Below are positions 482 to 20,024 of a stretch of DNA of 21,242 nucleotides, piece after piece. The notes beneath the pieces are model-generated. The model searched no databases, had not been told where the DNA came from, and saw nothing but the letters and a program-made list of their open reading frames with translations. The DNA is taken from the IMG/VR virus record IMGVR_UViG_3300037237_000474, positions 1 through 21,242 of that record; one strand, 5' to 3'. The stretch is from a virus. A program made the translations under genes and the position numbers. How positions within the stretch are numbered: the first letter of the stretch is position 1; each line of letters opens with the position of its first letter.

Positions 482-1219
482 ATGTCGATCAAACTTACGG
501 ATGCACAGCTGGCGATGCTGACCGTAGCGTCGCTGCGAGACGATCGCTGCCTTACTTTGCAGAAGAATCTCAGAGGAAGCGCTGCCCAGAAGGTCTTCGC
601 AAAGTTGTCGGCGGAAGGCCTCGTGAAAGAGGTCCTTGCGAAGGCGGGCGCCCCTGTCTGGCGCCGCGACGAGGAAGCCGGGCGGTCCTATTCGCTCAAG
701 CTGACGGCGGCAGGGCTTAGGGAAGCTTCCGCCGAAAGCGGCAGCCCGCGCCAGGTTGCGGCCACAGATGAAACACCGGCCGCCAGCAACTTGGCGGAGG
801 ATCCGGTTGTCGCCCCGGGCACGATTCCGGCGGTCCGGATCTCCGTGGCTGCGACTCCTGCGGCCACGACCGCAGCTGACGCAAACCCGCCCCGCGAGGG
901 AACGAAGATCGCCAAAGTGCTCGGCCTTCTTCGACGCAATGAGGGCGCCACGCTGGCCGAGATGATCGCGGCAACCGGCTGGCTGCCGCACACGACTCGC
1001 GCGGCGCTGACGGGCCTGCGAAAGCGTGGGTGTGTCCTAGGGATCGACCGATCCGACAAAGAGCGGGGCTCGATCTACCGCGTCGCAGGAGATGCGAGCG
1101 CTGGAGACACGATAGGAGACCCCGGGATCGCGGTCCCGGACAATGCCGTCTCAGCGCCTCCGCGCCGCTCGAAGAGGGCAGGGGCAGCCACCGCAGCTCA
1201 AGCGCGCAAAGCGGCGTGA
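482..1219 (+). CDS. DUF3489 domain protein
   Basis: 245 aa protein of unknown biochemical role, recognised by its C-terminal DUF3489 winged-helix-like segment at about residues 138-200 (KIAKVLGLLRRNEGATLAEM, then GWLPHTTRAALTGLRKRG, then a SIYRV ending). The N-terminal third (SIKLTDAQLAMLTVAS) has the usual family opening. It is linked to the C-terminal part by an Ala/Pro-rich stretch, and the tail is basic and Ala-rich (RRSKRAGAATAAQARKAA). I chose ATG 482 over the in-frame GTG at 473 because AGAAGGG lies about 8 bases upstream and the family normally begins at this point. It is followed after 15 bp by the DUF2924 gene and then the recombinase, the standard order in alphaproteobacterial recombinase cassettes. 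A DNA-binding or accessory role in recombination is inferred from that linkage and is not shown. Confidence 0.88.
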   Translation: MSIKLTDAQLAMLTVASLRDDRCLTLQKNLRGSAAQKVFAKLSAEGLVKEVLAKAGAPVWRRDEEAGRSYSLKLTAAGLREASAESGSPRQVAATDETPAASNLAEDPVVAPGTIPAVRISVAATPAATTAADANPPREGTKIAKVLGLLRRNEGATLAEMIAATGWLPHTTRAALTGLRKRGCVLGIDRSDKERGSIYRVAGDASAGDTIGDPGIAVPDNAVSAPPRRSKRAGAATAAQARKAA

Positions 1220-1234
1220 TGGCCGCGAAAAGGA

Positions 1235-1816
1235 GTGCGGAGGGCATGGGACGCAATGGCGCCCATCGGCCCTCCCCAAGGCGGGGCAGGGACTCTGGAC
1301 GTCGCAATCAGCAGCCTTGGCGATCGCGACGCCGATCAGCTCCGCCTCCAATGGCGAAACCACCTGGGCGGGGCCGCGCCCGCCCATCTGCCGCGCTGGC
1401 TGCTGGTGCGCCTGCTTGCCTATCGCTTGCAGGTCGCAGCGCTCGGCGATCTCGACAAGGCGACGCTACGGACCCTTCGCCTACCCAAAGGCGAAGGCGA
1501 CGGGGCCTCCGACTGCCGCCCGTTCGAGATCCGAGGGCCGACGACCCGCGCCGGGGTCGGCCTTAAGCCAGGTTCGCTACTCGTTCGTGAATGGAACGGC
1601 AGGCGGGAGCGAGTGATGATCCTTGAAAAAGGCTTCGCCTGGAACGGGGCGACCTATCGCAGCCTCTCGCAAATTGCCAAAGCGATGACCGGCACCAGTT
1701 GGAACGGTCATCGCTTCTTCGGATTGCGGCCGGGGAAGGGTCAAGGCGTTGCAGCTAAAGGGAGCCGCTCCTCCGACGAGAACCGGAATCATGATGCGGG
1801 TGTGGCGGCGTCATGA
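1235..1816 (+). CDS. DUF2924 domain protein
   Basis: 193 aa (GTG start) or 186 aa if the in-frame ATG at 1256 is used; AAAAGGA lies close to the GTG and GGAGGG lies before the ATG. The family is recognised by the N-terminal helix with LQWRNHLGG and LLVRLLAYRLQ (about residues 41-66) and the C-terminal block (about residues 113-165) with LKPGSLLVREWNGR, GFAWNGATYRSLSQIA and TGTSWNGHRFFGL, the hallmark of DUF2924. Its TGA overlaps the ATG of the recombinase (ATGA), so translation is probably coupled. The function is unknown; it is nearly always found just before a large serine recombinase, which suggests an accessory role in site-specific recombination or its control. Confidence 0.9.
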   Translation: MRRAWDAMAPIGPPQGGAGTLDVAISSLGDRDADQLRLQWRNHLGGAAPAHLPRWLLVRLLAYRLQVAALGDLDKATLRTLRLPKGEGDGASDCRPFEIRGPTTRAGVGLKPGSLLVREWNGRRERVMILEKGFAWNGATYRSLSQIAKAMTGTSWNGHRFFGLRPGKGQGVAAKGSRSSDENRNHDAGVAAS

Positions 1817-4980: not shown

Positions 4981-5220
4981 CCCAAGCACGCCCCGGTGTC
5001 GCGCGCTGTTCACTCTCATCGTTCCCATTGTCGCCGAATTGGCCAGCCAATAGCGACATTCTACAAGCGAAAAGATAAGGCGCTTTCGCTAATAGCTTCT
5101 AGGCTCAACGTCGATCGCTGGCCGTTGTTCTAATGTTGCACCCCTACGGTGACGCAGCGCGGGCGGTTTGCTATTCGGGAAAAAAAACGAACTATATGGG
5201 GGTGGCGAGAGAACCACCGT
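4978..5220. repeat. Tandem repeat, unit 1
   Basis: First of three related units. Anchors shared with unit 2 are GTCCCCAAGC (4978 versus 5237), CGACATTCTACAAGCGAAAA (5054 versus 5311), the stretch around GCTCAACGTCGATCGCTGGC, then ACCCCTACGGTGACGCAGCG and the two-box core (GGGCGGTTTGCTATTCGGG and TATATGGGGG with TGGCGAGAGAACCA). The offset to unit 2 is 257-259 bp. In this copy the CGCAGCGC / GGGCGG junction (5160/5161) is intact, so it records the target site before the IS1 insertion. Confidence 0.85.
5168..5198 (+). promoter_or_regulatory. Promoter-like two-box core, repeat unit 1
   Basis: TTGCTA (5168-5173) and TATATG (5193-5198), 19 bp apart. The same boxes and the same spacing recur in units 2 and 3. 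The boxes are conserved while the spacer differs, which is what a recognised site would show. Only a reading frame of ten codons (GTG GCG AGA GAA...) follows. Confidence 0.4.
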
Positions 5221-5236
5221 TGCCCTGCCGGTAGCC

Positions 5237-5417
5237 GTCCCCAAGCGCGCCCCGGCACGCGCTGCCAAGCGGGTGTTCACCCGCTCTCAGCCGAATTGGC
5301 CTGCCTATTGCGACATTCTACAAGCGAAAAGATAAGGCGCTTTCGCTAATAGCTTCTTGGCTCAACGTCGATCGCTGGCCGTTGTTCTAATGGCGCACCC
5401 CTACGGTGACGCAGCGC
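5237..5417. repeat. Tandem repeat, unit 2, left part (cut by IS1 element)
   Basis: Second unit, nearly identical to unit 1 across the CGACATTCTACAAGCGAAAA and ACCCCTACGGTGACGCAGCG anchors. It is interrupted after CGCAGCGC by the IS1-family element and resumes at 8455. Differences from unit 1 cluster in the first ~70 bp. Confidence 0.85.
5410..5417. repeat. Target site duplication, left copy
   Basis: CGCAGCGC directly before the left inverted repeat; the same 8 bases stand at 8447-8454. Repeat unit 1 has this octamer only once (5153-5160), so it is a true duplication. Eight or nine bp is normal for IS1-family elements. Confidence 0.9.
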
Positions 5418-5437
5418 GGTAGTGGGTCCATTTGAAT

Positions 5438-6691: not shown

Positions 6692-6895
6692 TCATGCCTG
6701 AGCGTCAAGCATTTTTTCTATATTTGAATTTTCTCCGGCTCTCTTTTTCACGGCCGTCCAAATGCGTGAAACAGATTTCTCAGCTTCTTTCTCGGGGGTT
6801 AAGAGGTCATGATGCGAGCCGCCGCTTCTGATCATCGCCAAAATGTCATCGATTCTATCATCTAGATCTTCCGGCATCTCTTTAGGACCTTTCAT
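6692..6895 (-). CDS. 67 aa acidic/helical protein of unknown function (IS1 passenger)
   Basis: ATG 6895 overlaps the TGA of the hydrolase-like gene (ATGA), so translation is probably coupled. An in-frame ATG a few codons later (MPEDLDDRIDDILAM) is an alternative start. The protein is charged and predicted helical (EDLDDRIDDILAMIRSG, then EKEAEKSVSRIWTAVKKRAG), without signal peptide or membrane segment. I do not recognise the family. The overlap suggests that it works with, or controls, the preceding Ntn-hydrolase-like protein. Base composition is AT-richer than the neighbouring chromosome, as in that gene. Confidence 0.7.
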   Translation of the reverse strand: MKGPKEMPEDLDDRIDDILAMIRSGGSHHDLLTPEKEAEKSVSRIWTAVKKRAGENSNIEKMLDAQA

Positions 6896-8154
6896 GGCGA
6901 TACTCCTTTCGTCGCGAGATTCTTTCGGATAGAAAAATCCAAATTGGTCTCAGCCTTGAAATAGTGCTTTCTTTTGATCCAAATAAATCCGTCGCCTTTC
7001 GAAATAATCGCCACGTCAACTGGACCGCCCACCGATTCCAAAGTGGGGCCAAGCTTCCGGCGTAGCGCCGTCAATTCAACAAGCGCTTCGGCCATTGCGG
7101 CCATTTCCTCTTTTGGAAGAGAGTTTACGGTCTTAAGCGTTTGCTCAATAAGGCTCTTGTTGCGATATTTGCTGAACTCGGCGAAAAGCTCGTCGTTTAT
7201 AACCTTGTTCTCTGCTTCCTGTTTTGTCTTCTCGGCAGGCCTAGCCTTTACGTCAGATACGAAAGCGTCGACCATAGCTTCCGATTTTTTCTTTAGTAGT
7301 TCACGTATAGCTTTTCTCAAATATCTAAGATAATTGCCAGAAATTCCCTCCATAAATAGCTGAAGCATATCGCTCTGAGCGAAGGGTATGATTGCGCCGC
7401 CCGTGTCTGCCTGGCGCCCGGGGACCAGATTATAATTTAGGCTCTGCCGTTCCCAAACCCTCACACACGCGAGGGCGCGCCCGTCTACCTCGTATCTCAG
7501 AACGGCGGGCAGAAATTCTTCTCGGCCGTATCCCGCGAAAACAATACCGGAAGAAAACTCCGAGATTTTTTTCCTAGAAATCCATTCAAACATATATTCA
7601 CATAACTTGGTGTTAAGTTGTTCGTTAGGCTTATGCTTGAAAGCCTCTTTACAGATTCCTTTCACGGCCTGCTTAAATGTACTAACAAAAGTTCCTCTAT
7701 CAAAAGAAAAATCTGCAGGAGTTTTAGTTATAGCAGCCATGGCGTCCGTTATATATTTTTCCAGATTAGTGTTGAATTCTTTATATGTCTTAAACTTGAC
7801 GGCACTTTCTATTTCGTAGGTAATGTTCACGATCAGCCTTGCGAAACTTTCGAATTCTTCTTTGTCATTTTTGAATCTGTTCGATTTTATAAAATCAATG
7901 AAATGGACTGCCGCATCGCTTACCGTGATAAAATGAGTATCAGCGCAATGGCGTCTAAATTCCTTAACTATTGTTTCCCATGGAATGCCTACGAAATCAG
8001 CGGAATTATAGATCATAACTCCGATGTCATTGTGAGGACCGAGGGAGAATAGCTTATTGGCGTACTTCCAAACGCGCTCGCGGCCGACAGTTACAGCACT
8101 GTCGGCCGCGAGCGCGATGGCATGTCTATTTACGATTGCGACTTCAGCCGTCAT
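6892..8154 (-). CDS. Proteasome-fold (Ntn-hydrolase-like) protein, IS1 passenger
   Basis: 420 aa from ATG 8154; the frame stays open to 8391, but the longer N-terminus overlaps the upstream gene and is not protein-like. The start MTAEVAIVNRHAIALAADSA, then NKLFSLGPHNDIGVMIYNSA, matches the opening of proteasome beta/HslV-type Ntn hydrolases. If Met1 is removed, the catalytic trio falls in register: Thr1, Asp17 (AADSA) and Lys33 (NKLF). A later strand block SSGIVFAGYGREEFLPAVLR (about residues 212-231) fits the second half of such a fold. Residues about 65-205 form a mainly helical insertion, a Lys/Glu-rich helical stretch follows at about 285-370, and the end VDVAIISKGDGFIWIKRKHY looks conserved. 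Self-processing is unnecessary, since Thr2 is adjacent to Met1. Substrate and role are unknown. It is cotranscribed with the KGG-type and 67 aa genes. The N-terminal match is seen; peptidase activity is inferred. Confidence 0.78.
   Translation of the reverse strand: MTAEVAIVNRHAIALAADSAVTVGRERVWKYANKLFSLGPHNDIGVMIYNSADFVGIPWETIVKEFRRHCADTHFITVSDAAVHFIDFIKSNRFKNDKEEFESFARLIVNITYEIESAVKFKTYKEFNTNLEKYITDAMAAITKTPADFSFDRGTFVSTFKQAVKGICKEAFKHKPNEQLNTKLCEYMFEWISRKKISEFSSGIVFAGYGREEFLPAVLRYEVDGRALACVRVWERQSLNYNLVPGRQADTGGAIIPFAQSDMLQLFMEGISGNYLRYLRKAIRELLKKKSEAMVDAFVSDVKARPAEKTKQEAENKVINDELFAEFSKYRNKSLIEQTLKTVNSLPKEEMAAMAEALVELTALRRKLGPTLESVGGPVDVAIISKGDGFIWIKRKHYFKAETNLDFSIRKNLATKGVSP
8073..8116. 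repeat. Perfect 18 bp inverted repeat inside the hydrolase gene
   Basis: CGCGCTCGCGGCCGACAG (8073-8090) and its exact complement (8099-8116) are separated by 8 bases. The repeat lies about 38-81 bases into the coding sequence, over the codons for the ALAADSAVTVGRER part that contains the catalytic Asp. In the mRNA this would be a very stable hairpin close to the start codon. Confidence 0.9.
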
Positions 8155-8446: not shown

Positions 8447-8454
8447 CGCAGCGC
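8447..8454. repeat. Target site duplication, right copy
   Basis: CGCAGCGC directly after the right inverted repeat of the IS1 element, identical to 5410-5417. Confidence 0.9.
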
Positions 8455-8513
8455 GGGCGGTTTGCTATTCGGGAAAAAAAACGAACTATATGGGGGTGGC
8501 GAGAGAACCACCG
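8455..8513. repeat. Tandem repeat, unit 2, right part
   Basis: Continuation of unit 2 after the insertion: the two-box core and TGGCGAGAGAACCACCG, identical to 5161-5219 of unit 1. Joining 5417 to 8455 restores the repeat exactly, which proves the insertion boundaries. Confidence 0.9.
8462..8492 (+). promoter_or_regulatory. Promoter-like two-box core, repeat unit 2
   Basis: TTGCTA (8462-8467), 19 bp spacer, TATATG (8487-8492), identical to unit 1. It points rightward. A frame of 15 codons opening GTG GCG AGA GAA follows at once. Confidence 0.4.
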
Positions 8514-8790
8514 CCCAAGAGGTTCCGCCAAGCGGTTTCCTGACCGGCGCGTCAATCGCGCCCTCCGCTGTTCACCGCTGTTGCGTCGCATCGCGCGCAT
8601 TGTCGCCGGATTGGGATGGAAGTTACCACTTTCATACGCCGCAAGGATCGCGCGCTTTCCCTAGTATCATCTAAGCTCAACGCCGATTGCGTGCCAGTGT
8701 TCTAAATTGGCACCCCCCGATGTTTCGTCGAGGGCGGTTTGCTATTCGGGATTGGAATCGCTTTATATGGGGCATGGCGAGAGAACCAAC
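8514..8790. repeat. Tandem repeat, unit 3 (diverged)
   Basis: A diverged third unit with recognisable ATTGTCGCCG-ATTGGG, CTAAGCTCAACGCCGATTGC and TGTTCTAA-TTGGCACCCC, then GGGCGGTTTGCTATTCGGG and TATATGGGG with TGGCGAGAGAACCA. The two boxes are perfectly kept although the spacer between them (ATTGGAATCGCTT in place of AAAAAAAACGAAC) is different. Confidence 0.75.
8739..8769 (+). promoter_or_regulatory. Promoter-like two-box core, repeat unit 3
   Basis: TTGCTA (8739-8744), 19 bp, TATATG (8764-8769). Spacing equals units 1 and 2 despite a different spacer sequence. The ATG of a 34-codon frame lies five bases after the second box. The core may also drive the small-gene operon that starts at 9018. 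Confidence 0.45.
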
Positions 8791-9017: not shown

Positions 9018-9191
9018 ATGATGCTTGAACGAATGCTGCTCGTCATCGACGAGATTCACGACACGACTGGCGTATCGCGAACGAAAATCTATGAGGCGAT
9101 GCGGAGCGGCCGGCTGCGCTTCAAAACCGTGGCCGGGCGCAGGCGCGTTACGCCCGCCGATCTGCGCGCATGGCTCGGATTGGACGCTTGA
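9018..9191 (+). CDS. Excisionase-like HTH protein
   Basis: 57 aa with ribosome binding site AAAGGA. The pattern LLVIDEIHDTTGVSRTKIYE, AMRSGRLRFKTVAGRRRVTP and ADLRAWLGL is the classical MerR/excisionase-type DNA-binding fold: HTH with SRTKIYEAM recognition helix, a GRL turn, an RRRVT wing and a final ADLRAWL helix. Such proteins direct phage and island excision or regulate early genes. It is the first gene of a plus-strand cluster of small genes, and its TGA overlaps the next ATG (TGATG). Confidence 0.8.
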   Translation: MMLERMLLVIDEIHDTTGVSRTKIYEAMRSGRLRFKTVAGRRRVTPADLRAWLGLDA

Positions 9192-9376
9192 TGGCGGCCG
9201 CGCAGGCCGATGTATCGGTCTACAGCGGCCGTGTTTGTCTCGGCGCCGTGACGATGCGCGCTGGCAAGCACGCCGCCACCGACGCGGCTGGCCGCAAGCT
9301 CGGCGCGTTCACGACTCGCAAGAGCGCGCTCGCCGCCGTGAGCGATGCGGCGTCGAAAGAAAGGACCGTGCATTGA
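9191..9376 (+). CDS. 61 aa phage-type protein of unknown function
   Basis: Starts with an ATG that overlaps the stop of the excisionase-like gene. The sequence QADVSVYSGRVCLGAVTMRA, then HAATDAAGRKLGAFTTRKSA, is a short beta-rich pattern frequent among phage accessory proteins (a strand pair followed by a GRxLGxFxTxxxA turn). It is basic and soluble, with no membrane segment. I cannot assign a function. Confidence 0.65.
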   Translation: MAAAQADVSVYSGRVCLGAVTMRAGKHAATDAAGRKLGAFTTRKSALAAVSDAASKERTVH

Positions 9377-9579
9377 GAGACAACAGCAAGCCGCAGAGGT
9401 TTTTGCCGCCTGCGGCATACAGAAAATTCCGCCAGAATCAGCGGAGCCGTCAACGCCCCGATGCGCTCGCGTCGAATTTCGTCGAGCGCGGGGACGCGGC
9501 AAGCATCGTGCGCGAGCATGAGCCGTTGCGGGACTGGCAACGGCCCCACGTTATCGAGAATATTTCACAAACCAACTGA
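9373..9579 (+). CDS. 68 aa basic protein of unknown function
   Basis: Proposed start TTG 9373, overlapping the preceding stop (TTGA). The frame reads RDNSKPQRFLPPAAYRKFRQ at its start and ENISQTN at its end. It is rich in Arg, Gln and Pro, and low-complexity in the middle. The start choice rests on the operon-like overlap only; no good Shine-Dalgarno is present. No family recognised. Confidence 0.45.
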   Translation: MRDNSKPQRFLPPAAYRKFRQNQRSRQRPDALASNFVERGDAASIVREHEPLRDWQRPHVIENISQTN

Positions 9580-9593
9580 GGTTTTTTTCATCA

Positions 9594-9803
9594 ATGATTA
9601 TTCAAGACAGGTGCCAAGCGGGAAAGCCCGCGTTGAGCATTGGAGATTGCGCCGGAATAGCTGGCGTGAAGCGTGACGAAATTCACTTTGCCATGATGAG
9701 CGGCCGGCTCCCTTGGCGCCGCATCGATGACAAGAGAGTCGTCGACCCGCCTGACCTTCGCAATTGGATGTTGCGCAGGCAGGGGACCGGACGTGTCAAC
9801 TAG
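9594..9803 (+). CDS. Second excisionase-like HTH protein
   Basis: 69 aa, ATG 9594 with GAGG twelve bases upstream. LSIGDCAGIAGVKRDEIHFA, MMSGRLPWRRIDDKRVVDP and PDLRNWMLRRQ follow the same plan as the 9018 protein (HTH, SGRLPW turn, KRVV wing, final DLRNWM helix), but the two are not close in sequence. Likely a DNA-binding regulator or recombination directionality factor. Its stop lies 11 bp inside the next gene. Confidence 0.7.
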   Translation: MIIQDRCQAGKPALSIGDCAGIAGVKRDEIHFAMMSGRLPWRRIDDKRVVDPPDLRNWMLRRQGTGRVN

Positions 9804-10149
9804 CACCGCCATCCCGCCAAATCAGCGCCCGCCGCCAGAAGTGGCCGCCGCGCTGAAACGAATCGCCCGCCTAAATTACAAACTGCCATTTACCGGAGCG
9901 GCCGACATAAGGCGCCGGGAAGCCCTATGGCTGCTAAGGGGTCGCGGCGCATCGGACGGCGAAGTCAAAGCGCGGATCGGCCAGATCTCCGCTGAGGTAG
10001 GCTTCAGCAGTTCAAAGCAACTCGGCGAGCATCTTAGGCTGCTCGGCGCCGAGAAGCCAGTTTGGCATTCGACAACTGCGCCCGATCGATCGGACGCCCA
10101 AACAGCAAGCCGAAATCAATCAATCTCGCCGAAACGAGCGCAAGCGTGA
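9793..10149 (+). CDS. 118 aa protein, possible HTH regulator
   Basis: Starts at GTG 9793, overlapping the previous gene by 11 bp. The central segment DIRRREALWLLRGRGASDGE and VKARIGQISAEVGFSSSKQL, then GEHLRLLGAEKPV, could be a helical or winged-helix-like fold. The N-terminus is Pro-rich and the C-terminus is polar and likely disordered. No family recognised. Position among HTH genes suggests an early or regulatory phage function. Confidence 0.55.
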   Translation: MSTSTAIPPNQRPPPEVAAALKRIARLNYKLPFTGAADIRRREALWLLRGRGASDGEVKARIGQISAEVGFSSSKQLGEHLRLLGAEKPVWHSTTAPDRSDAQTASRNQSISPKRAQA

Positions 10150-10186
10150 GAAGCGCGCCGCCGCCAAGGCCATGAAGGAAGCACAC

Positions 10187-10447
10187 ATGACAATCAAATC
10201 GCGGCTCGACGAAATCGTCGAAGCGCTGGATATATCGACGTGGCGCAGCGCGCGCGAAGTTGGCGACGCCGTGGCCGCGAGTCCAGCCTTTAGCGGACTG
10301 GCATCGGTCCTATCCCGGCAGGCAATCATCCGGCGATCCATAGGCAGGCTCGTCGCGCTCGGCGCGGTCGAAACCGAGGAACGGATGACGCCTTATGGTC
10401 TGGCCGTCTATGTCCGCCGTTTATCGGGCTCGGCCACTGTTCATTGA
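10187..10447 (+). CDS. Winged-helix-like DNA-binding protein
   Basis: 86 aa from ATG 10187; AAGGA lies seven bases upstream, which favours it over the in-frame ATG 10172. Sequence TIKSRLDEIVEALDISTWRS, AREVGDAV and SRQAIIRRSIGRLVALGAVE, then a YGLAVYVRRL strand, fits a short winged helix (helix, HTH, RRSIGRL recognition helix, wing). Probably a phage regulator; the target is unknown. Last gene of the first small-gene cluster. Confidence 0.65.
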   Translation: MTIKSRLDEIVEALDISTWRSAREVGDAVAASPAFSGLASVLSRQAIIRRSIGRLVALGAVETEERMTPYGLAVYVRRLSGSATVH

Positions 10448-10573
10448 GTGCTGTTCGCAATGTGCCGTTTTCTGTTCGGGTTGGTTTTGCTGGCCAAAGG
10501 CGAGCCAGCGAAGGATTTGAGCAGCCCGCCAGCAATCAATCGTTCGCCCGCAGCCTCGATTGGCAATCCTACC

Positions 10574-10786
10574 CTAGGCAAGCGCATGACGGCCTCGACC
10601 TTGCCGAGCAGCAACCATAGCCGAGGCGTCGACCAAAGCCGCCAGCGCGGCCCGCAAGCCCGATATGGCCCCAATCATCACGTCCGCCTCGGCTGGCGTC
10701 AGCGCAGCGACTTCGGCGTGATGAGAGAACGTTAGATTGTCCCGCCGGCGGGACAGTTCAAACCTAACCGCCGTCGGGCCGGCGCC
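10574..10786 (-). CDS. Possible minus-strand small protein
   Basis: 70 aa from GTG 10786, TAG stop at 10574. Reads VKSPGAGPTAVRFELSRRRD, then AALTPAEADVMIGAISGLRA and ALAALV, which looks like a plausible strand followed by a long helix. Codon third positions are mostly G or C, as in real genes here. It runs against the direction of the surrounding cluster, lacks a Shine-Dalgarno sequence and includes the palindrome at 10738, so it may be a shadow. Confidence 0.3.
   Translation of the reverse strand, partial: GAGPTAVRFELSRRRDNLTFSHHAEVAALTPAEADVMIGAISGLRAALAALVDASAMVAARQGRGRHALA
10738..10755. promoter_or_regulatory. Perfect 18 bp palindrome (operator candidate)
   Basis: TGTCCCGCCGGCGGGACA is a complete dyad without a loop, 63 bp before the ATG at 10819. 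That is the size and symmetry of a dimeric repressor site. No T-run follows, so a terminator is less likely. Confidence 0.45.
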
Positions 10787-10818
10787 GGGACTTTTCACCT
10801 GATAGAGGAGAACACCAA

Positions 10819-10974
10819 ATGTCACGACCAACAGATGCCGCCCGCACGAAGACGCCCGCAGGCAAAGCCGAAATCCGAGCCGCCGCTCGCGCCCTCGGCG
10901 CCGATGTCGAGCGTATCGAGCGCGAATCCGCCAAAGCCAAGCGCCGGGCCGAGCGCAAAGGCCAAGCTGACTGA
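10819..10974 (+). CDS. 51 aa charged helical protein
   Basis: ATG 10819 with AGAGGAG ten bases upstream, one of the best ribosome binding sites in the cluster. Sequence SRPTDAARTKTPAGKAEIRA, then ALGADVERIERESAKAKRRA, is strongly charged and almost certainly helical throughout. No family recognised. It opens the second small-gene cluster behind the palindrome. Confidence 0.6.
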   Translation: MSRPTDAARTKTPAGKAEIRAAARALGADVERIERESAKAKRRAERKGQAD

Positions 10975-11013
10975 CGCGGCGTTACGACATTTTGCCCGAG
11001 CCAGATCTCCTCG

Positions 11014-11367
11014 ATGGCTAGAGAGCCCGTAAGGGCGAACTGCCAGATAGGCCAGAGCGCCACGGTAACAGGAATGGCTCTTGGCCCCCCATCGGGAACG
11101 CCAAGGCAACGCCTGCGCGCCGTCCTGCAACGGATATGCTCGCAAAACGACCCGATAACGGCCTGTTTCGCCCGTGACAAACAGGACATTCCGTTGCGCG
11201 CATGGCTCGCAAAGCCCGTTTCCTCGCCCTCGCCAGCCCCGCGAAGCCCGATTCCTCGACAGACACACTACCCAACCAGAAAAGAGAAAATCCACCATGA
11301 CAGCCCCTCACGTCCCGACCGAAAGATCGCGCGGGATGGTTTTGGCCCTAACCGGCTTCGGAATTGA
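11014..11367 (+). CDS. Doubtful basic ORF
   Basis: The frame starting MAREPVRANCQIGQSATVTG has one plausible helical part (RQRLRAVLQRICSQNDPITA), but its last 70 bases overlap the well-supported gene at 11297 in another frame and there is no Shine-Dalgarno sequence. It may be a gene that ends badly or a chance frame in a ~320 bp gap that otherwise holds nothing I can name. Confidence 0.2.
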   Translation: MAREPVRANCQIGQSATVTGMALGPPSGTPRQRLRAVLQRICSQNDPITACFARDKQDIPLRAWLAKPVSSPSPAPRSPIPRQTHYPTRKEKIHHDSPSRPDRKIARDGFGPNRLRN

Positions 11368-11740
11368 ACAGCCGGCCATTGCCGCAGAGCTTGGAATTAA
11401 CGTCCGAACCCTTAGCAAACATTACAAAAACGAGATACTGGTCGGAACGCCACGGCTCATCGCCAAGCTGGCCGCCAGCCTGACGCGCCGGGCTCTGGAC
11501 CCGAAAGGCGGAATGCCAAGCACCGTCGCGAACATTTTCATGCTCAAGACGCGCGGCCGTTGGCGCGAAAGCCAGCTAATCCAGCACGAAGGGCGCGATG
11601 GCGAGGCGCTGCAGAACAACGGCACCGTTAATTTTGTCACAGTTTCGTTGCCCGATAATGGCACGGCGCCACCGATGAAGACGATCGAGGGCCGCGCGCT
11701 GAAGACGATTGCGCATATCAAGGCCAAAGCCGCACCATGA
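11297..11740 (+). CDS. Small-terminase-like HTH protein
   Basis: 147 aa. The block MVLALTGFGIEQPAIAAELG, INVRTLSKHYKNEILVG, then AKLAASLTRRAL and FMLKTRGRWRE (about residues 12-95) matches the pattern of short HTH proteins of alphaproteobacterial prophages (GxGxxQxxIAxxLGIxxxTLxKHYxxEL, and a later helix ending in LKTRxGWxE) that are usually compared with terminase small subunits of the Nu1 type. The second half (GTVNFVTVSLPDNGTAPPMK) is a strand plus tail. If so, it recognises phage DNA for packaging; an alternative is a transcription factor. No large terminase is found next to it. The stop overlaps the next start (ATGA). Confidence 0.65.
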   Translation: MTAPHVPTERSRGMVLALTGFGIEQPAIAAELGINVRTLSKHYKNEILVGTPRLIAKLAASLTRRALDPKGGMPSTVANIFMLKTRGRWRESQLIQHEGRDGEALQNNGTVNFVTVSLPDNGTAPPMKTIEGRALKTIAHIKAKAAP

Positions 11741-12003
11741 TCCGCTTTGTCGATGCTGGCCCCGCCAAGCCCAAGGCCGCCACGGCGAGGGCCGCGCTTG
11801 CCGCCGCTGAGGCCGCGCTTGGCGTGAAGCCTGTTAGCACCCCGCCTGCTAACAAGCGCCCTGTTAGCACCCCGACGCCTGCTAACAGGCCGACGCCTGT
11901 TAGCACCCCGGCCGAGCCGGTTCGCACCGATCGAAAGACCTATCAGCGCGACCTTATGCGGGCGCGTCGAGCAGCGGCCAAATTGGCGTCGAAGGCCGCG
12001 TAA
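11737..12003 (+). CDS. 88 aa protein with PVSTP/PAN repeats
   Basis: Coupled by ATGA to the preceding gene. The N-terminus is Ala-rich and helical (KAATARAALAAAEAALGVKP). The centre repeats PVSTP three times, interleaved with PANKRP and PANRPTP, and the C-terminus is basic and helical (RTDRKTYQRDLMRARRAAAK). The Pro/Thr/Ser linker joins two helical ends. At DNA level the linker is made of CCTGTTAGC and its complement GCTAACAGG, so it is also an array of inverted repeats. Function unknown. Confidence 0.6.
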   Translation: MIRFVDAGPAKPKAATARAALAAAEAALGVKPVSTPPANKRPVSTPTPANRPTPVSTPAEPVRTDRKTYQRDLMRARRAAAKLASKAA

Positions 12004-12205
12004 GTTGTCCGCCAAGGGCGGCCGAAAGCGGCTCGATTGTTGTCCATGCGTTGTCCAGACGCTCGGCCCGCACGGCTGGCTCGTTCGCAACGCCTAGAAA
12101 AGCATGGTCGCAAGCGGATTAGAGCATGTGATACTAAATCGCACGCTCGCTAATGGTGCGCCGTGGACCACCATTTAAGTCCGGGCAGTGGAACGGACTT
12201 TGCCA

Positions 12206-12233
12206 CAACTTGTGTTCCGTGGACCACAAGTTG
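12206..12233. repeat. Inverted repeat CAACTTGTG / CACAAGTTG
   Basis: Perfect 9 bp arms (12206-12214, 12225-12233) around a 10-base loop. The loop includes part of CCGTGGACCAC, also found at 12161-12171. Possible protein binding site. Confidence 0.6.
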
Positions 12234-12471
12234 CGCCATTCTAATCTACTAGAGAAGCGAGGCCCGCAATCGCCCGGTTTTGCTGGCTTTTCTATACCGC
12301 GGCGGCTTTCGGGGTAGCCGATAGGGTGGCGAACACCCCTCTGAAATCGTTGCTCGACCCTCTGAAACCGTTCGCCATGCGAGCGCGCATTGACTTGCTT
12401 GGCCCTCATGAACCGGCTGACATGGCCTCGACGTCGAGCGTCGAGCACTGGTTGCTCACGGAGGCCAGCAC

Positions 12472-12495
12472 GTCGGCCCTAGCGAGGCCGTGGGC
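12472..12495. repeat. 24 bp direct repeat, copy 1
   Basis: GTCGGCCCTAGCGAGGCCGTGGGC, identical at 17331-17354. It contains a small dyad CGGCC-CTAGCGA-GGCCG. The two copies bracket the block from 12828 to 17270. Confidence 0.85.
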
Positions 12496-12754
12496 GGCAG
12501 TTGCGAGGCGTCCGCTACACCTACGGCCGCGACGATTGCCTGCCGTGTGTGAGGCCCTTATCGAGCCCGTCAATCCGCCCTCGACGATGATGCTCGCCGC
12601 CCTGTCGCTGGCGATCGGAAAGGACGAGGCAGGACGATTTGCGAAGCGGCCCGCGCCGGGGCCAGCGCCGCCCCCGGTCTGGATTTTTCAAAAAATCAAA
12701 GGGGCCATGCCCCGCGCAAATTTTTTCGCCTCTAAAAACGGGGCCAATCCAATT

Positions 12755-12783
12755 CATGCAACGGCGAAATCCGCCATTGCATG
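12755..12783. promoter_or_regulatory. Hairpin upstream of the 12828 gene
   Basis: CATGCAACGGCG / CGCCATTGCATG with one mismatch and a 5-base loop, ending 44 bp before the ATG at 12828. Operator or terminator candidate. Confidence 0.45.
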
Positions 12784-12827
12784 TTTCACCCGCCGCCATG
12801 CGCGGCAACAAGAGAGAACGAGAACCA

Positions 12828-13052
12828 ATGTCAATTGAAAATCCTGCCCCCTCGCCCGTCTACATCGACAATAGCGCCGCGCCGATTCATCCCGCGATGG
12901 TCGACTCCAAAGGCTCCGTCACCAATGCCGGCCCTCACAATCAGGGCTCGATTCACGCGGCCAATGGCCCGGAAACTTCCTACGCCATCGGCTCCGTCGA
13001 ACATGCTGCAGCGGTTCTTGCTGCGGCCGGTAACGTCGAAATCGTCCGATAA
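12828..13052 (+). CDS. 74 aa phage-cluster protein of unknown function
   Basis: ATG 12828 with the purine-rich AGAGAGAACGAGAA upstream. Sequence SIENPAPSPVYIDNSAAPIH, then DSKGSVTNAGPHNQGS and SVEHAAAVLAAAGNVEIVR. Polar, Gly/Ser/Asn-rich and without membrane segment; it looks like a small virion-associated or decoration-type protein, but this is only an impression. First gene of the third cluster. Confidence 0.6.
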   Translation: MSIENPAPSPVYIDNSAAPIHPAMVDSKGSVTNAGPHNQGSIHAANGPETSYAIGSVEHAAAVLAAAGNVEIVR

Positions 13053-13114
13053 ATCTCAAAACGGCGCGGCTGGACAGTCCAGCCCGTCGCTCAAAATCCA
13101 AAAGGTGAAATGAA

Positions 13115-13951
13115 GTGAAATTCCCTAGAATTGTATCCAAATCCAAAATCAAGACGCCCGTTATCGAGGCCAAAGCCAAGCCGCCGGTGTCTGAAGCGCG
13201 CCGCCAACTCGCTGAATTGATCGAGGCCCGCGCCGCCTTGGTCGCAAAGGCCGAGGGCCTTCATGCCGCCGCGATGGCGCTCGAGTCCAAACGAGGCGAG
13301 GCCGCGCCATTCGAGGGCGAGCTTCAAAAACTCGACGCGACCGAGCGTGAATCGATTGCCAGATGGGCCAAAGCTGGCGGCGAAGGCCGCGCGCCTAGGC
13401 CGGATGCCGCCAGGCGCGCCAGGCTCGACCGGGCTCTTGCTGAAGCACGCGCATCCGCCAATGCCTCGACGACCGCTCAGACCGCCATCTTGGCCGACCA
13501 TGCCGCAGTTTCGCAAGAGATTCATCGCCTCGCCGCGCCTGTCGACATCGCCATAGCGGCGATTATTGCGGAAAGCTGCGATTCGCTGATTTCTGAATTC
13601 GACGCGGACAATCGCAAGCTCGCTGCGAAGATGATGAAGCTCAATCAGGCCCTCGAAATGGTTCTTGCCACGCTCGACAACGTTCGCGGAACGGAACCGG
13701 GCCGGGCCGTATCGTTCGACCTTGAGCGCCTGCACGGCAAACTGAAGACGACATTTGCCATGCCGCCGACCGACCTAGACGCGGCCTCACAGAGCCGACT
13801 AGCTTGGCGGGCGTTTTCTGACGGCTTGAGGGTCGACTCAAACCTGAAATTGGACGCGGCGGCCGTCGAGAACGTCGAGCCAGCGCGTGAGCCCGACATG
13901 GCCTCGATCATAACCAAACGAAACGCATCCATCGCCAAATTGGCGGCATGA
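13115..13951 (+). CDS. 278 aa helical/coiled-coil protein
   Basis: GTG 13115 preceded by AAAGGTG. After a basic opening (KFPRIVSKSKIKTPVIEAKA) the protein is nearly all helix with heptad-like spacing (ARRQLAELIEARAALVAKAE at about residues 28-47; ARLDRALAEARASANASTTA further on). It ends in PDMASIITKRNASIAKLAA. No catalytic motif, signal or membrane segment. Size and composition would suit a scaffold, a head-tail accessory or another structural helper of the neighbouring tape-measure gene. I do not recognise the family. Confidence 0.7.
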   Translation: MKFPRIVSKSKIKTPVIEAKAKPPVSEARRQLAELIEARAALVAKAEGLHAAAMALESKRGEAAPFEGELQKLDATERESIARWAKAGGEGRAPRPDAARRARLDRALAEARASANASTTAQTAILADHAAVSQEIHRLAAPVDIAIAAIIAESCDSLISEFDADNRKLAAKMMKLNQALEMVLATLDNVRGTEPGRAVSFDLERLHGKLKTTFAMPPTDLDAASQSRLAWRAFSDGLRVDSNLKLDAAAVENVEPAREPDMASIITKRNASIAKLAA

Positions 13952-13965
13952 AAGGACAACGAATC

Positions 13966-14286
13966 ATGGCACTCAAAGGCAACATTTATCTCGGCCTAGA
14001 TGGCGTCGCGCCAAGCGCCGCATACGTCCGGGAGATTCAGGAAAAATTCGGCACGGGCGGCGCGCTCGGCAAGACAGCGGCGGCCGACCCCTTCCTCGCT
14101 CAGGCCAACGATCTTTTAGCCAAGATCGCGGCGGCGCTTGACCCGAAGGCCGAACCGCTCGCTAAAGTGGCGGCTCCTCTCTCGCCTCTTGAAAGGGTAG
14201 AAGCGGCGTTCGACGCGCTCGCCAAGGCCGTAGCGGGCTTCGATGACTTGGGGCATCGGCTTGCGGCCGTGGAGGCGGACAGATGA
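13966..14286 (+). CDS. 106 aa phage-cluster protein
   Basis: ATG 13966 with AAAGGA nine bases upstream; an earlier in-frame ATG at 13948 overlaps the previous gene. Opens ALKGNIYLGLDGVAPSAAYV and continues with a helical Ala-rich part (PLSPLERVEAAFDALAKAVA). No family recognised. Its stop is fused to the next start (ATGA). Confidence 0.65.
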   Translation: MALKGNIYLGLDGVAPSAAYVREIQEKFGTGGALGKTAAADPFLAQANDLLAKIAAALDPKAEPLAKVAAPLSPLERVEAAFDALAKAVAGFDDLGHRLAAVEADR

Positions 14287-14474
14287 GCGATCGTGTTTTC
14301 GCTCCCACGCGCGGGGTCAGCTACATATACGGCGATCTACTTCGCCGCTCCAAAGAGATGGGGAACATCGGCGAGCAACGGATTCTTCTCGCCGAACTGG
14401 CGCTCATGCGCGAAACGCTGCGGGCCTTGGAGGCGCGGTTTTTGCCGCCCTACAACCCGGGAACTCGCCAATGA
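14283..14474 (+). CDS. 63 aa phage-cluster protein
   Basis: ATGA-coupled to both neighbours. Sequence SDRVFAPTRGVSYIYGDLLR, then EQRILLAELALMRETLRALE, is a short N-terminal arm followed by one long amphipathic helix. Function unknown; possibly a tail chaperone-sized helper, which is only a size argument. Confidence 0.6.
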   Translation: MSDRVFAPTRGVSYIYGDLLRRSKEMGNIGEQRILLAELALMRETLRALEARFLPPYNPGTRQ

Positions 14475-14698
14475 GTCGGCATGTCAAATACGGTGAAACT
14501 ATCTCTGGCGCGTCTACCGCGCGGCGATTGTTGAGTGACGTTGTGGCTGAAATCGGCGAGGCGTTTCGCGAAATGCCTGACGGTCCCGAAAAGCGCGTGG
14601 CCAAGGCCATGTTGAGCGAAATCCGAGAGCGCGTTCGCGAACTTTCGGCAAGGCTTTTGGGGCCGCACGGTTGCGTGAGAGCAGGGGTGTCAGCATGA
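14471..14698 (+). CDS. 75 aa phage-cluster protein
   Basis: ATGA-coupled start. SRHVKYGETISGASTARRLL, then SDVVAEIGEAFREMPDGPEK and AMLSEIRERVRELSARLLG form a charged helical protein. No family recognised. Confidence 0.6.
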   Translation: MSRHVKYGETISGASTARRLLSDVVAEIGEAFREMPDGPEKRVAKAMLSEIRERVRELSARLLGPHGCVRAGVSA

Positions 14699-14955
14699 CG
14701 ATGGTAAAGATGTTCGGCCCGCCGGGCACAGACGAATGCAACCACGGCGAGATGAAGTTTTCACGTCATGAGGACGGGAGCTTTTGGGTGATTCCTGAAG
14801 CCGTGGAACCGCTTTGCCGCGTGGGAGGCTTTATCGTGGCCGTCGACCAATCGCCCCCTATCACCGCCGCTCACATCGCCGAGCTTGTGGCCGAGGAAGC
14901 AGCGCTGTTGCTCGCGCCGAAGCCCTCGCCGATGCGCTTGACGATCCCGGCATAA
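14695..14955 (+). CDS. 86 aa phage-cluster protein
   Basis: ATG 14695 overlaps the preceding stop. TMVKMFGPPGTDECNHGEMK, then GSFWVIPEAVEPLCRVGGFI give a compact beta-rich start with two Cys, followed by an ITAAHIAELVAEEAALLL helix. Short strand-rich phage proteins of this kind can be virion accessory proteins; the function here is unknown. A hairpin follows 6 bp after its stop. Confidence 0.6.
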   Translation: MTMVKMFGPPGTDECNHGEMKFSRHEDGSFWVIPEAVEPLCRVGGFIVAVDQSPPITAAHIAELVAEEAALLLAPKPSPMRLTIPA

Positions 14956-14961
14956 AGAATC

Positions 14962-14996
14962 CTCTCGCCGCGCCATCATGCGCGGGGCGGCGAGAG
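14962..14996 (+). terminator. Hairpin after the 14695 gene
   Basis: CTCTCGCCG (14962-14970) and CGGCGAGAG (14988-14996), 9 bp perfect arms, a few bases after the TAA. A second dyad, GCGGCCCGG / CCGGGCCGC (15005-15013 and 15034-15042), follows. No T-run, so termination is uncertain. Confidence 0.45.
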
Positions 14997-15140
14997 TAGA
15001 TCAGGCGGCCCGGTATGGGCTTCTCCGGCGCGGCCGGGCCGCTACTGATTTCCATTTCCAAATTGCCAACTTGAACGGCGTCGGGAAGGTTCCTCCTCCC
15101 GACGAAAACGGCTCCGTGTCCCGTTCTCAGTGTCGGCAAC

Positions 15141-15272
15141 GTGGTGCAGACCGATTCATACCGGGGTTGCACCATCTGCGGCGGCGCGTGCCATTTCGCG
15201 CCGCCGCTTTTCAATGAATTCGTCAGACGGGCGCGCTCGCCCGCCGCATTTTCGCAGGAACCATTTCAATGA
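15141..15272 (+). CDS. Possible 43 aa Cys-cluster protein
   Basis: Starting at GTG 15141, the frame reads VVQTDSYRGCTICGGACHFA, then PPLFNEFVRRARSPAAF. The CxxCGGxCH motif could bind a metal. The stop overlaps the next gene's start (ATGA), as in the rest of the cluster, which argues for a real gene. Against it: no Shine-Dalgarno sequence, and the CGGxCHFAPP codons are the same bases that form a terminator-like hairpin (15178-15207). Confidence 0.35.
   Translation: MVQTDSYRGCTICGGACHFAPPLFNEFVRRARSPAAFSQEPFQ
15178..15207 (+). terminator. Strong GC hairpin with short T-run
   Basis: GCGGCGGCGCG (15178-15188) and CGCGCCGCCGC (15197-15207), 11 bp perfect, 8-base loop, followed by TTTT. This has the form of an intrinsic terminator, but it lies within the possible 43 aa gene and upstream of the tail genes. 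It could serve as an attenuator. Confidence 0.5.
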
Positions 15273-15430
15273 ATCCAATCGACCCTAACACCATCCCCTC
15301 GCCCGCCTTTGTCGCCGCGCTCGCCGATGCTATCGCCGCCTACGCACGCAACGATGCCGTAGCGTTGCTCAGAGCCCGCGCCGACGTTCTGGAGATACTC
15401 CAAAGGGAGGCTCTCGACCCATGCCCGTAA
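15269..15430 (+). CDS. 53 aa helical phage-cluster protein
   Basis: ATG 15269 overlaps the stop of the preceding frame. NPIDPNTIPSPAFVAALADA, then RNDAVALLRARADVLEILQR form a single helical unit. It overlaps the next gene by 10 bp. No family recognised. Confidence 0.55.
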   Translation: MNPIDPNTIPSPAFVAALADAIAAYARNDAVALLRARADVLEILQREALDPCP

Positions 15431-15531
15431 TCCCCGACGACGACACTGGCGAGCCCCTTCGCAAAACCGTTTTTCGGCCGCCGCAGCCCTATCCCGTTCC
15501 GCCATTTGAATTTGAAATTAGGAAAATCTGA
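15421..15531 (+). CDS. 36 aa Pro-rich protein
   Basis: Starts at ATG 15421 inside the previous gene (GGGAGG lies eleven bases upstream) and stops two bases before the tape-measure start. PVIPDDDTGEPLRKTVFRPP, then PYPVPPFEFEIRKI. Too small to classify. Placement directly before a tape-measure gene is where tail assembly chaperones usually lie, but it is much shorter than those. Confidence 0.45.
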   Translation: MPVIPDDDTGEPLRKTVFRPPQPYPVPPFEFEIRKI

Positions 15532-15533
15532 CC

Positions 15534-17270
15534 GTGGCAAACCCGTATGAAATCGCAATCCATATCTCCATGCAGAACGCCGTTTCGCCGGTTCTCGCGC
15601 TGATTGCCAAGGACATGCTTGGCCTGCAAATGGGCGCGAAGAAACTTGAGGAAGCGTTCGGCGCCGTTGGCACAAAGCTGAAGCTCGCTGTTGGCGGCGC
15701 GGCGGCTGCGGTCGCGGTCGGCGCGCTGCGCGTGACGAATGAAATGCGCTCCGTCTTGGGCGACATAAACAAAGCCGCCGCCGCAGCGCCGATGGCGCTG
15801 AAGGTCGAGGCGATGGTTTCCAACGCCACCGGCAAGGATGCGGAAGGCGAAGGCTTCAAGCTTTGGCGAGCGATGGAAATGAAGGGCATCACGACTTCAA
15901 ACCCGGCCTTGACGAACAAGCTCATGGACGCCTTGATGCAAGACATCATCGGCTCTGGCGGTAAGCTCGACGCCGGAACCTATCAGCAAATCGCCCGGCG
16001 CGGCGGCGCGGCGTGGATTCACGCGACGCCAGAATTTGCGGCCGGCCCGCTGTCCGTCCTCGCGGCCGATCTTGGCGGCGAGGGCGCCGGAACCGCGATC
16101 ATGACGCTACGCAACTTGCTGACCGGCGCAACGGTTATGTCGAAGCAGCAATACGGCGTCCTGTCCGACGCTGGGTTGATCGACAAGTCGAAGGTGAGCT
16201 TCAACGCGAACCATACAATCAACGCCGCGCCGGGCGCGATTGCCGGCAGTCTCCAATATGGCGACGATCCGTATGCTTGGGCGCAGTTCATCAAAGGCCC
16301 CCTGATGAATCTCGCCAAGGGCGATCCCAAGGTTTTCGACAGCCTGCTCGCCAAGCTTGGTCGCAATCGTAACGCGATCAAAATGCTGACCATGTTTACC
16401 GATCCCGGCTTTGGCGATCAGATCGCCAAGGATATTTCGCTTTGGTCGCAGGCGATGGGAATCGATCAGGGCTATGACGCCATGATCGGCCGTCGCAGCC
16501 GCCCCATGTCGCCGACCGAGGCCGCCGATATGGCCGGCCCCGGAGCCTACGCCAAGCAAGTCGATAGCGCGCAACAGATGGCCGATTACACGGCCGTCAT
16601 GAAAGCGTTCCAAGCGCAATGGGGATCGATGACGATGGCCGTGGGGAGCCAAGCAACCCTTGCAATGATTCCGATTTTGCAGAATTTGACCGGGGCGTTC
16701 ACCACGATGGGGGCCTTCGCCAGCGCCCACGGAACCGCGATGGCGGCTATCGTCCAGTTATCCATCGCGCTAACCGCCGCGCTAGCCGCGATGGGAGTTG
16801 TTGCTGTCGGCGCCGCCGCTGGCATCCCCGGCTTGATTGCCGCTCTCGCCGTGGCCCTTGGCGCATTGGCGGTCATAAATTGGGGCGCCATAAGCGGCGG
16901 GCTAACGAAGTTCGTCGACACGATCAATGCGTTCTTTGCATTCCTCGACGAAAGGCTCGGCATAACTGGCGGCCCGGCCTCGCCGTTCCATATCGACAAG
17001 ATCATCAGCGCCGCGTCGCCGTTCAATCCGCTCGCGCCGGCCATGCACTATGGCGCCGACTACGGCCGTGAGGCCGCTAACGGCCGAGCCTTGATGAGCC
17101 TTCCCGTTCCCGTCACGAACGTAAGCGTGAGGGTGACGAACACCCTTGATAGCCGGGCTATCGCCTCGGAAGTGTCGACTCTCATCACGCGGGACAATCG
17201 CACCGTGAATTCGTCGAGCGGCTATGACGGCAGCGCGGGCGAGGTCTATCCCGATTACGGAAGGCACTAA
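15534..17270 (+). CDS. Phage tail tape-measure-like protein
   Basis: 578 aa from GTG 15534, with AGGAAA upstream. The N-terminus (ANPYEIAIHISMQNAVSPVL, then a helical LQMGAKKLEEAFGAVGTKLK and a hydrophobic Ala/Val segment at about residues 51-65) is typical of tape-measure proteins. The middle part, AADLGGEGAGTAIMTLRNLL, LLSDAGLIDKSKV-like turns (here GVLSDAGLIDKSKV) and YGDDPYAWAQFIKGPLMNLA at about residues 180-265, matches a tape-measure family of Hyphomicrobiales prophages as I recall it. Residues ~405-455 are strongly hydrophobic, suited to membrane passage during ejection. It is short for the family, so it would give a short tail. In phage it sets tail length and acts inside the tail tube. 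No tail tube, baseplate or tail tip genes follow. Confidence 0.8.
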   Translation: MANPYEIAIHISMQNAVSPVLALIAKDMLGLQMGAKKLEEAFGAVGTKLKLAVGGAAAAVAVGALRVTNEMRSVLGDINKAAAAAPMALKVEAMVSNATGKDAEGEGFKLWRAMEMKGITTSNPALTNKLMDALMQDIIGSGGKLDAGTYQQIARRGGAAWIHATPEFAAGPLSVLAADLGGEGAGTAIMTLRNLLTGATVMSKQQYGVLSDAGLIDKSKVSFNANHTINAAPGAIAGSLQYGDDPYAWAQFIKGPLMNLAKGDPKVFDSLLAKLGRNRNAIKMLTMFTDPGFGDQIAKDISLWSQAMGIDQGYDAMIGRRSRPMSPTEAADMAGPGAYAKQVDSAQQMADYTAVMKAFQAQWGSMTMAVGSQATLAMIPILQNLTGAFTTMGAFASAHGTAMAAIVQLSIALTAALAAMGVVAVGAAAGIPGLIAALAVALGALAVINWGAISGGLTKFVDTINAFFAFLDERLGITGGPASPFHIDKIISAASPFNPLAPAMHYGADYGREAANGRALMSLPVPVTNVSVRVTNTLDSRAIASEVSTLITRDNRTVNSSSGYDGSAGEVYPDYGRH

Positions 17271-17281
17271 AGCAAGCGCAA

Positions 17282-17307
17282 CGGCCCGGCATGGAATCGC
17301 CGGGCCG
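17282..17307 (+). terminator. Hairpin after the tape-measure gene
   Basis: CGGCCCGGC (17282-17290) and GCCGGGCCG (17299-17307), 9 bp perfect arms and an 8-base loop, 11 bp after the stop codon. No T-run. Its position suggests the end of the cluster. Confidence 0.5.
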
Positions 17308-17330: not shown

Positions 17331-17354
17331 GTCGGCCCTAGCGAGGCCGTGGGC
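17331..17354. repeat. 24 bp direct repeat, copy 2
   Basis: Identical to 12472-12495. Here CCCA before and TGGG after extend the internal dyad. The copy stands 60 bp after the tape-measure stop. Confidence 0.85.
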
Positions 17355-18745: not shown

Positions 18746-19036
18746 TCAATCCGGCCACGGCCGCAAACCGGCTTCGGCCTCGCGTTCGATACGGTCGCGT
18801 TCCCTTATGCCTTCCGAAGCTGGCGAGCTTCCCTTGTCCCAAAAGTAGGTTTCCCTGCCGATCAAGAGCGCCGCGAGGGCGTCGATCGCGGTTATGACCA
18901 TGCTTAGGCCGTGATACATTGTCCCCATAGGCTTGACGTGCGTTGACGCCTCAATCATCGCCCGCCGACACGCCCGCAGGGAGCCGAGCAACGGGCCGGG
19001 ATTGGCGATCTTGTCGGGCAGTTTGTGGTAGACCAT
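18746..19036 (-). CDS. 96 aa protein of unknown function, with a truncated second copy nearby
   Basis: ATG 19036 with GGAG eight to nine bases upstream. PGPLLGSLRACRRAMIEAST, then GTMYHGLSMVITAIDALAAL and YFWDKGSSPASEG, followed by a Glu/Arg helix and a C-terminal GLRPWPD. The central hydrophobic helix may touch membrane or form a core. The tail is repeated in the 19890-20024 fragment with several substitutions, mostly in the charged helix. Conservation of the reading frame between two copies shows that this is a true gene. Family not recognised. Confidence 0.7.
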   Translation of the reverse strand: MVYHKLPDKIANPGPLLGSLRACRRAMIEASTHVKPMGTMYHGLSMVITAIDALAALLIGRETYFWDKGSSPASEGIRERDRIEREAEAGLRPWPD

Positions 19037-19889: not shown

Positions 19890-20024
19890 TCATCCGCCAT
19901 CTGGCCACGGCCGCAGACCGGCTTCCGCTTCGCGCTCGATACGCTCACGCTCCCTTCTTTCTTCTGAGGCCGGCGACGATCCCTTGTCCCAAAAATAGTC
20001 GGGGCGCCGGATCACAAGCTCCCC
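19890..20024 (-). pseudogene. 3' part of a second copy of the 18746-19036 gene, cut by an ISAs1 insertion
   Basis: Minus-strand frame: ELVIRRPDYFWDKGSSPASE, then REAEAGLRPWPDGG-type end (actual: EREAEAGLRPWPDGG) and a TGA. It aligns with ALLIGRETYFWDKGSSPASE and the GLRPWPD end of the gene at 18746. Homology runs right up to base 20024, where the ISAs1 inverted repeat starts, so the insertion has removed the front of the gene. The missing N-terminal part should continue just past 21242. Confidence 0.85.

What the first reader, a model, noticed from the sequence alone, without database searches (positions are those of the whole stretch)
9018..17270. Phage-like cluster with small-terminase and tape-measure features but no large particle genes
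About 17 mostly tiny, overlapping plus-strand genes include two excisionase-like proteins, a Nu1-like HTH protein and a 578 aa tape-measure-like protein. Portal, major capsid, large terminase, tail tube and lysis genes are not seen. This composition fits a phage satellite that re-directs packaging and tail length, or a strongly reduced prophage or domesticated tail remnant.
Basis: inference. Interest (0 to 1): 0.65.

Follow-up and report, generated by a model that had tools for sequence, protein, structure and literature searches.

The report
Phage island: orphan packaging, tape-measure genes
A small stretch of virus-derived DNA beside bacterial-type genes keeps one DNA-packaging gene and one tail-length gene while the genes they normally work with are gone, which looks most like a worn-down prophage but could be a parasite that once borrowed another virus's particles.

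Summary
Window 9018-17270 carries about 17-18 mostly tiny plus-strand genes: two paralogous excisionase-type HTH proteins, a small terminase (TerS, 11297-11740; 'Nu1-like' is imprecise) and a full-length tape-measure protein (TMP, 15534-17270). Large terminase, portal, capsid, sheath, tube, baseplate and lysis genes were not found. TerS relatives in viral contigs almost always precede a large terminase (47 of 51 loci); TMP relatives sit in contractile-tail modules. Here both are orphans. The TMP evolved under constraint (dN/dS about 0.2) but lost a conserved 55-residue segment and changed about twice as fast as its relative. Accepted genes cover only 76% of the interval, with gaps where missing modules would lie. 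No integrase, replication gene or flanking att repeat was found. I favour a reduced, probably immobile remnant (0.5) over a working satellite (0.25). The satellite reading is live: a 2026 Nature paper shows PLE satellites encode their own shorter TMP and build chimeric tails. No other genome with the block was found, so the question stays open. Added: a 24-bp perfect direct repeat bracketing the TMP half, iterons beside terS, and a cargo-like gene related to genes of streptococcal satellites.

The parts
9018..9191 (+). a: 57-aa HTH_17 excisionase-type protein
   Evidence: Pfam E 4e-8, PHROG 66 E 7e-7
9191..9376 (+). b: 61-aa unknown, overlaps a (TGATG)
   Evidence: codon statistics
9594..9803 (+). 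d: second HTH, paralogue of a
   Evidence: 41% identity to a, E 4e-11
9793..10149 (+). e: 118-aa unknown, possibly a DNA-binding regulator by eye
   Evidence: no family hit; best own frame
10187..10447 (+). f: 86-aa unknown, winged-HTH-like by eye
   Evidence: no family hit; best own frame
10819..10974 (+). h: 51-aa charged protein
   Evidence: ribosome-binding site and frame
11297..11740 (+). j: small terminase (TerS), orphan of its large subunit
   Evidence: PHROG 309 E 1.6e-10; tblastn to 20 phages; relatives precede TerL
11737..12003 (+). k: 88-aa protein coupled to TerS (ATGA overlap)
11830..11904 (.). five alternating CCTGTTAGC copies (one with a mismatch) inside k: candidate packaging or replication site
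12472..12495 (+). 24-bp direct repeat, copy 1
   Evidence: perfect, 0 expected
12828..13052 (+). l: 74-aa unknown
   Evidence: read there from 12828; no family
13115..13951 (+). m: 278-aa long helical hairpin protein, unknown
   Evidence: AlphaFold2 single-sequence model, mean pLDDT 69, two long helices
13966..14286 (+). n: 106-aa unknown
   Evidence: codon statistics; no relatives
14283..14955 (+). o, p, q: three small genes chained by ATGA overlaps
15269..15531 (+). s, t: two small overlapping genes before TMP
15534..17270 (+). u: tape-measure protein, 578 aa, orphan of its tail module
17283..17306 (+). strong hairpin just after the TMP stop
17331..17354 (+). 24-bp direct repeat, copy 2
6692..8154 (-). 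possible cargo: proteasome-like Ntn protein (PHROG 5990) plus a 67-aa ORF; membership of the island uncertain

Best explanation
An 8.3-kb phage-derived island (perhaps 10.6 kb with its left cargo-like genes) beside bacterial-type genes. It is most likely what remains of a temperate contractile-tailed phage, or of a satellite of such a phage, and has no integrase, replication, large-terminase, head, tube/sheath, baseplate or lysis genes in this contig. It cannot make a particle by itself. Shown: TerS and TMP homology, absence of their usual partners here, low gene density, no att-like repeat above chance. Inferred: that the empty stretches are deletion scars; that the island no longer moves; and that any leftover activity would be TerS binding DNA near the iterons and recruiting a co-resident phage's large terminase, and the TMP competing for that phage's tail assembly.
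For: TerS is an orphan of a family that precedes TerL in 47 of 51 loci within about 3 kb. TMP is an orphan of contractile-tail modules. Gaps of 824 and 313 bp lie after TerS-k and before s-t-TMP, where TerL/head and sheath/tube genes normally sit; coding 76% by the accepted ORFs. No integrase, replication protein or att-like repeat. TMP lost a 55-residue segment present in L002, L003 and L010 and shows about twice as many lineage-specific changes as L002 (19 v 9, chi2 3.6; 20 v 8, chi2 5.1). An IS1-type gene abuts the left cargo; ISAs1 and Flp pilin lie to the right.
Against: No truncated structural gene was recognised in the gaps. The remaining genes are intact and coupled. TMP dN/dS is about 0.22 and its two deletions relative to L002 are in frame. 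The genes between TerS and TMP do not resemble known phage head or tail genes, as a simple deletion series would predict.
Confidence: 0.5

Rival explanations
1. A helper-dependent phage satellite. On helper entry or induction the excisionase-type proteins act, TerS marks the satellite DNA (iterons beside terS) for the helper's large terminase, and the shorter TMP replaces the helper's in tail assembly, giving chimeric particles.
For: TerS without TerL as in SaPIs (PMC8494744). PLE satellites encode their own TMP, make tails about 10 nm shorter and need it for transduction; some cf-PICIs carry putative tmp genes (PMC12987554). Compact coupled small genes, no structural fragments. TMP under purifying selection over most of its divergence. 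Neighbouring cargo-like gene has relatives in streptococcal satellites.
Against: No integrase, att repeats, replication gene, tail chaperone or baseplate hub recognised. Low gene density. No second copy of the block found anywhere searched.
Confidence: 0.25
2. A piece of a complete prophage or phage whose other modules lie elsewhere in the same genome beyond the contig ends, displaced by IS activity.
For: Short linear contig that ends in an ISAs1 transposase gene; IS1-type gene on the left.
Against: The block is followed by an Flp pilin gene and other non-phage genes on the right, and TerS and TMP each lack their immediate neighbours on both sides.
Confidence: 0.15
3. Retained (domesticated) genes that interfere with related phages, for example by the orphan TMP poisoning tail assembly.
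For: Intact TMP with conserved ends under past purifying selection; tail assembly is a known defence target (Tai, PMC11364771; Rta, PMC12987554).
Against: No conservation of the block between genomes seen; no known defence-family match in the block beyond a generic HTH.
Confidence: 0.07

Closest known systems
PLE satellites of Vibrio cholerae (PMC12987554)
   Same: Element without a full set of particle genes that carries its own tape-measure gene, shorter than the related phage's
   Different: PLEs have integrase, tail chaperone and baseplate hub and are shown to be mobilised; none of these was recognised here, and here a TerS is present
SaPI/PICI satellites
   Same: Orphan TerS without large terminase, excisionase-type regulator, similar size
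   Different: No integrase, att sites or replication gene; PICI-defining set not met
Temperate contractile-tail phages of the AP3/Mana (P2-like) and L002/L003/L010 type
   Same: Source family of the TMP: 70% of aligned residues identical to L002, 24% to AP3
   Different: All other tail genes are missing and the TMP lacks a conserved 55-aa segment
Phages with PHROG 309-like TerS (Vibrio phage Vaitephage, Bradyrhizobium phage ppBeUSDA76-1, IMG/VR contigs)
   Same: TerS 30-48% identity
   Different: There TerS is followed by TerL and portal

Membership tests
PICI/SaPI-type phage satellite | TerS without TerL | tested here: met
PICI/SaPI-type phage satellite | Integrase at one end | tested here: not met
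   none in the block; the serine recombinase at 1813-3489 belongs to a DUF3489-DUF2924-recombinase module found in unrelated contexts
PICI/SaPI-type phage satellite | attL/attR repeats around the element | tested here: not met
   longest shared direct repeat between the flanks 13 bp, as in shuffles; a short core would be missed
PICI/SaPI-type phage satellite | Replication module (primase/initiator) | tested here: not met
   no family hit
PICI/SaPI-type phage satellite | Mobilised by a helper phage | not testable with these tools
   needs induction and sequencing of particles
PLE-type satellite with chimeric tails | Own TMP gene distinct from the helper's | tested here: inconclusive
   TMP present; helper unknown
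PLE-type satellite with chimeric tails | Tail assembly chaperone and baseplate hub next to TMP | tested here: not met
   no hit; a very diverged small chaperone could be missed
Defective prophage | Phage genes with an incomplete set for a virion | tested here: met
Defective prophage | Truncated or frameshifted phage genes | tested here: inconclusive
   no recognisable fragment in the gaps; the TMP carries an in-frame loss of 55 codons
Tailocin / domesticated tail | Tube and baseplate genes | tested here: not met
   sheath, tube and chaperone-position proteins of L002, L010 and AP3 find no match in the window

The most novel reading that the evidence does not exclude
A phage satellite type that carries exactly two recognisable particle genes, a small terminase and a shortened tape-measure protein, so that one helper's packaging motor and tail length are both re-specified by the satellite; the bracketing 24-bp repeats suggest the TMP half is an exchangeable cassette.
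Probability: 0.18. Interest if true: 0.75.

Novelty: new member of a known kind. Interest (0 to 1): 0.38.

Why it matters
If it is a remnant, it is ordinary. If it is a satellite, it would extend the 2026 finding that satellites replace the helper's tape measure to another bacterial group and combine it with TerS-based packaging theft, a two-gene hijack that is simple to test (tail length by electron microscopy, DNA content by sequencing particles).

Tried and rejected
Relatives of the block: TMP and an alignment of it in genome contigs (none); TerS, m, q, n and TMP in viral contigs (only TMP and distant TerS relatives); concatenated small proteins by tblastn in phages and plasmids (none); gap ORFs (none); distant blastn in phages (none). 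Host genomes could not be sampled because the window is a virus record and no genome handle was obtainable. att repeats between the flanks: chance level only. The serine recombinase (1813-3489) as the element's integrase: thought unlikely, because its module occurs in unrelated contexts and lies 5.5 kb away. m as capsid: rejected, all-helical model; its Foldseek matches are weak and uninformative. q structure: too poor to use. HlyE hit for the TMP (E 0.012, below cut-off) taken as a chance match of helical protein. mad1 hit for the HTH taken as a generic HTH match. Small ORFs after the Ntn gene: shared position only, not sequence.

Full report
What was checked. The window is a 21,242-bp linear IMG/VR record, so claims of absence hold for this contig only. 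ORFs were listed in six frames, scored by codon statistics and compared with Pfam, PHROGs, NCBIfam and PADLOC. No tRNA or Rfam family was found.

The gene block. From 9018 to 17270 the plus strand carries about 17-18 credible genes, mostly under 120 codons, with start-stop overlaps a-b, j-k, n-o, o-p and p-q. The 18 accepted ORFs cover 76% of the interval; the larger uncovered stretches are 10448-10818, 10975-11296, 12004-12827 and 14956-15268. A minus-strand ORF at 10574-10831 could fill part of the first. Translations from the gaps match nothing in 50,697 phage records and no PHROG or Pfam family convincingly.

HTH proteins. 9018-9191 is an HTH_17 protein close to excisionases. 9594-9803 has no family hit but is a paralogue of it (41% identity, E 4e-11).

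Small terminase. The 147-aa product of 11297-11740 matches PHROG 309 (terminase small subunit, E 1.6e-10), and tblastn finds 20 phage records; in the three inspected the relative lies close upstream of the large terminase gene. A profile search of IMG/VR gave 80 loci. Of 51 with at least 2 kb downstream, 34 have a BLAST-recognised large terminase within 3 kb. In 13 more the next large ORF is a large terminase judged by its Walker-type motif; the six or seven of these put to PHROGs were confirmed (L013, L019, L025, L039, L044, L061, L077). In L011, L023 and L028 it is 3.3-5 kb away (PHROGs-confirmed for L011 and L023). L056 has none recognised nearby. In the window no large terminase follows.

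Tape measure. The 578-aa product of 15534-17270 has no tape-measure profile hit, but tblastn finds TMPs of the P2-like phages AP3 and Mana (24%, E 3e-7). Viral contigs L002 (52% over the tblastn segment with gaps; 70% of aligned residues), L003 and L010 have it downstream of a sheath (PHROG 23/279), a tube-position protein (PHROG 12993) and, in L002 and L003, a tail-completion protein; the L003 and L010 TMPs hit PHROG 28 TMP. The N- and C-terminal motifs are kept. Compared with L002 it lacks 55 codons after residue 57 and 11 codons further on; the 55-codon segment is present in L003 and L010, so its loss is derived. Over the aligned codons dN is 0.23 and dS 1.05 (NG86). With L003 or L010 as outgroup the window lineage has 19 against 9, or 20 against 8, unique changes (chi2 3.6 and 5.1). 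So the gene evolved mainly under constraint but about twice as fast as its relative; this fits relaxed constraint or adaptation, and it does not date the loss of its neighbours.

Sites. A 24-bp perfect direct repeat, GTCGGCCCTAGCGAGGCCGTGGGC, lies at 12472-12495 and 17331-17354, bracketing l to TMP (0 expected). Five alternating CCTGTTAGC copies, one with a mismatch, lie at 11830-11904 in gene k directly after terS, a position where phage packaging sites are often found (general knowledge, not tested). Strong hairpins lie at 15178-15207 and just after the TMP stop. Between the outer flanks the longest shared direct repeat is 13 bp, as in shuffles.

Surroundings. To the left lies a minus-strand gene for a proteasome-like Ntn protein (PHROG 5990; the fold assignment is by motif, from general knowledge), whose relatives in the phage collection are in Streptococcus satellite phages, two streptococcal prophages and a few other phages. 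It may be cargo of the same element; an IS1-type transposase gene ends next to it. To the right lie an Flp pilin gene and an ISAs1-type transposase.

Interpretation. The block cannot build a particle. A remnant explains the missing integrase, replication and att features, the low density, the gaps where modules belong, and the TMP changes. A satellite explains why only TerS and a shorter TMP are kept among intact coupled small genes with no recognisable structural fragments. It has precedents: SaPIs encode their own TerS (PMC8494744), and PLEs encode their own TMP and make shorter chimeric tails (PMC12987554). Several satellite-defining features were tested and not met, so it is not filed as a satellite. 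Confidence: remnant 0.5, satellite 0.25, displaced prophage 0.15, domesticated genes 0.07.

Noticed in passing
window 6892-8154 (minus), with 6692-6895: Proteasome-like Ntn protein (starts MTAEV...AADSAVTV) found in accessory positions of streptococcal satellites and of Providencia, Stenotrophomonas, Porphyromonas and streptococcal phages; in the window, Javan160, Javan421 and Providencia a small ORF of about 55-67 codons follows that is not similar in sequence. Possible phage-borne defence or exclusion cassette.
   Followed up: partly
window 473-3489 (plus): DUF3489 - DUF2924 - serine recombinase module; DUF3489-DUF2924 beside a recombinase remnant occurs in a Bradyrhizobium plasmid, and DUF2924-recombinase in an Eleftheria plasmid, outside phage contexts.
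   Followed up: partly
window 5033-5419, 8447-8513, 8729-8772: Intergenic repeats: a 130-nt direct repeat (95%), a 67-nt stretch identical at 5153 and 8447, and a diverged copy at 8729; REP- or MITE-like.
   Followed up: no
window 18749-18848 and 19899-19998: 100-nt direct repeat, 82% identical, on either side of the Flp pilin gene.
   Followed up: no
window 10574-10831 (minus): Plausible 85-aa minus-strand ORF inside the otherwise plus-strand block, no relatives.
   Followed up: no
L056 8001-10857: TerS relative followed by a large ORF without a PHROG hit and no large terminase recognised nearby; a second candidate orphan TerS.
   Followed up: no
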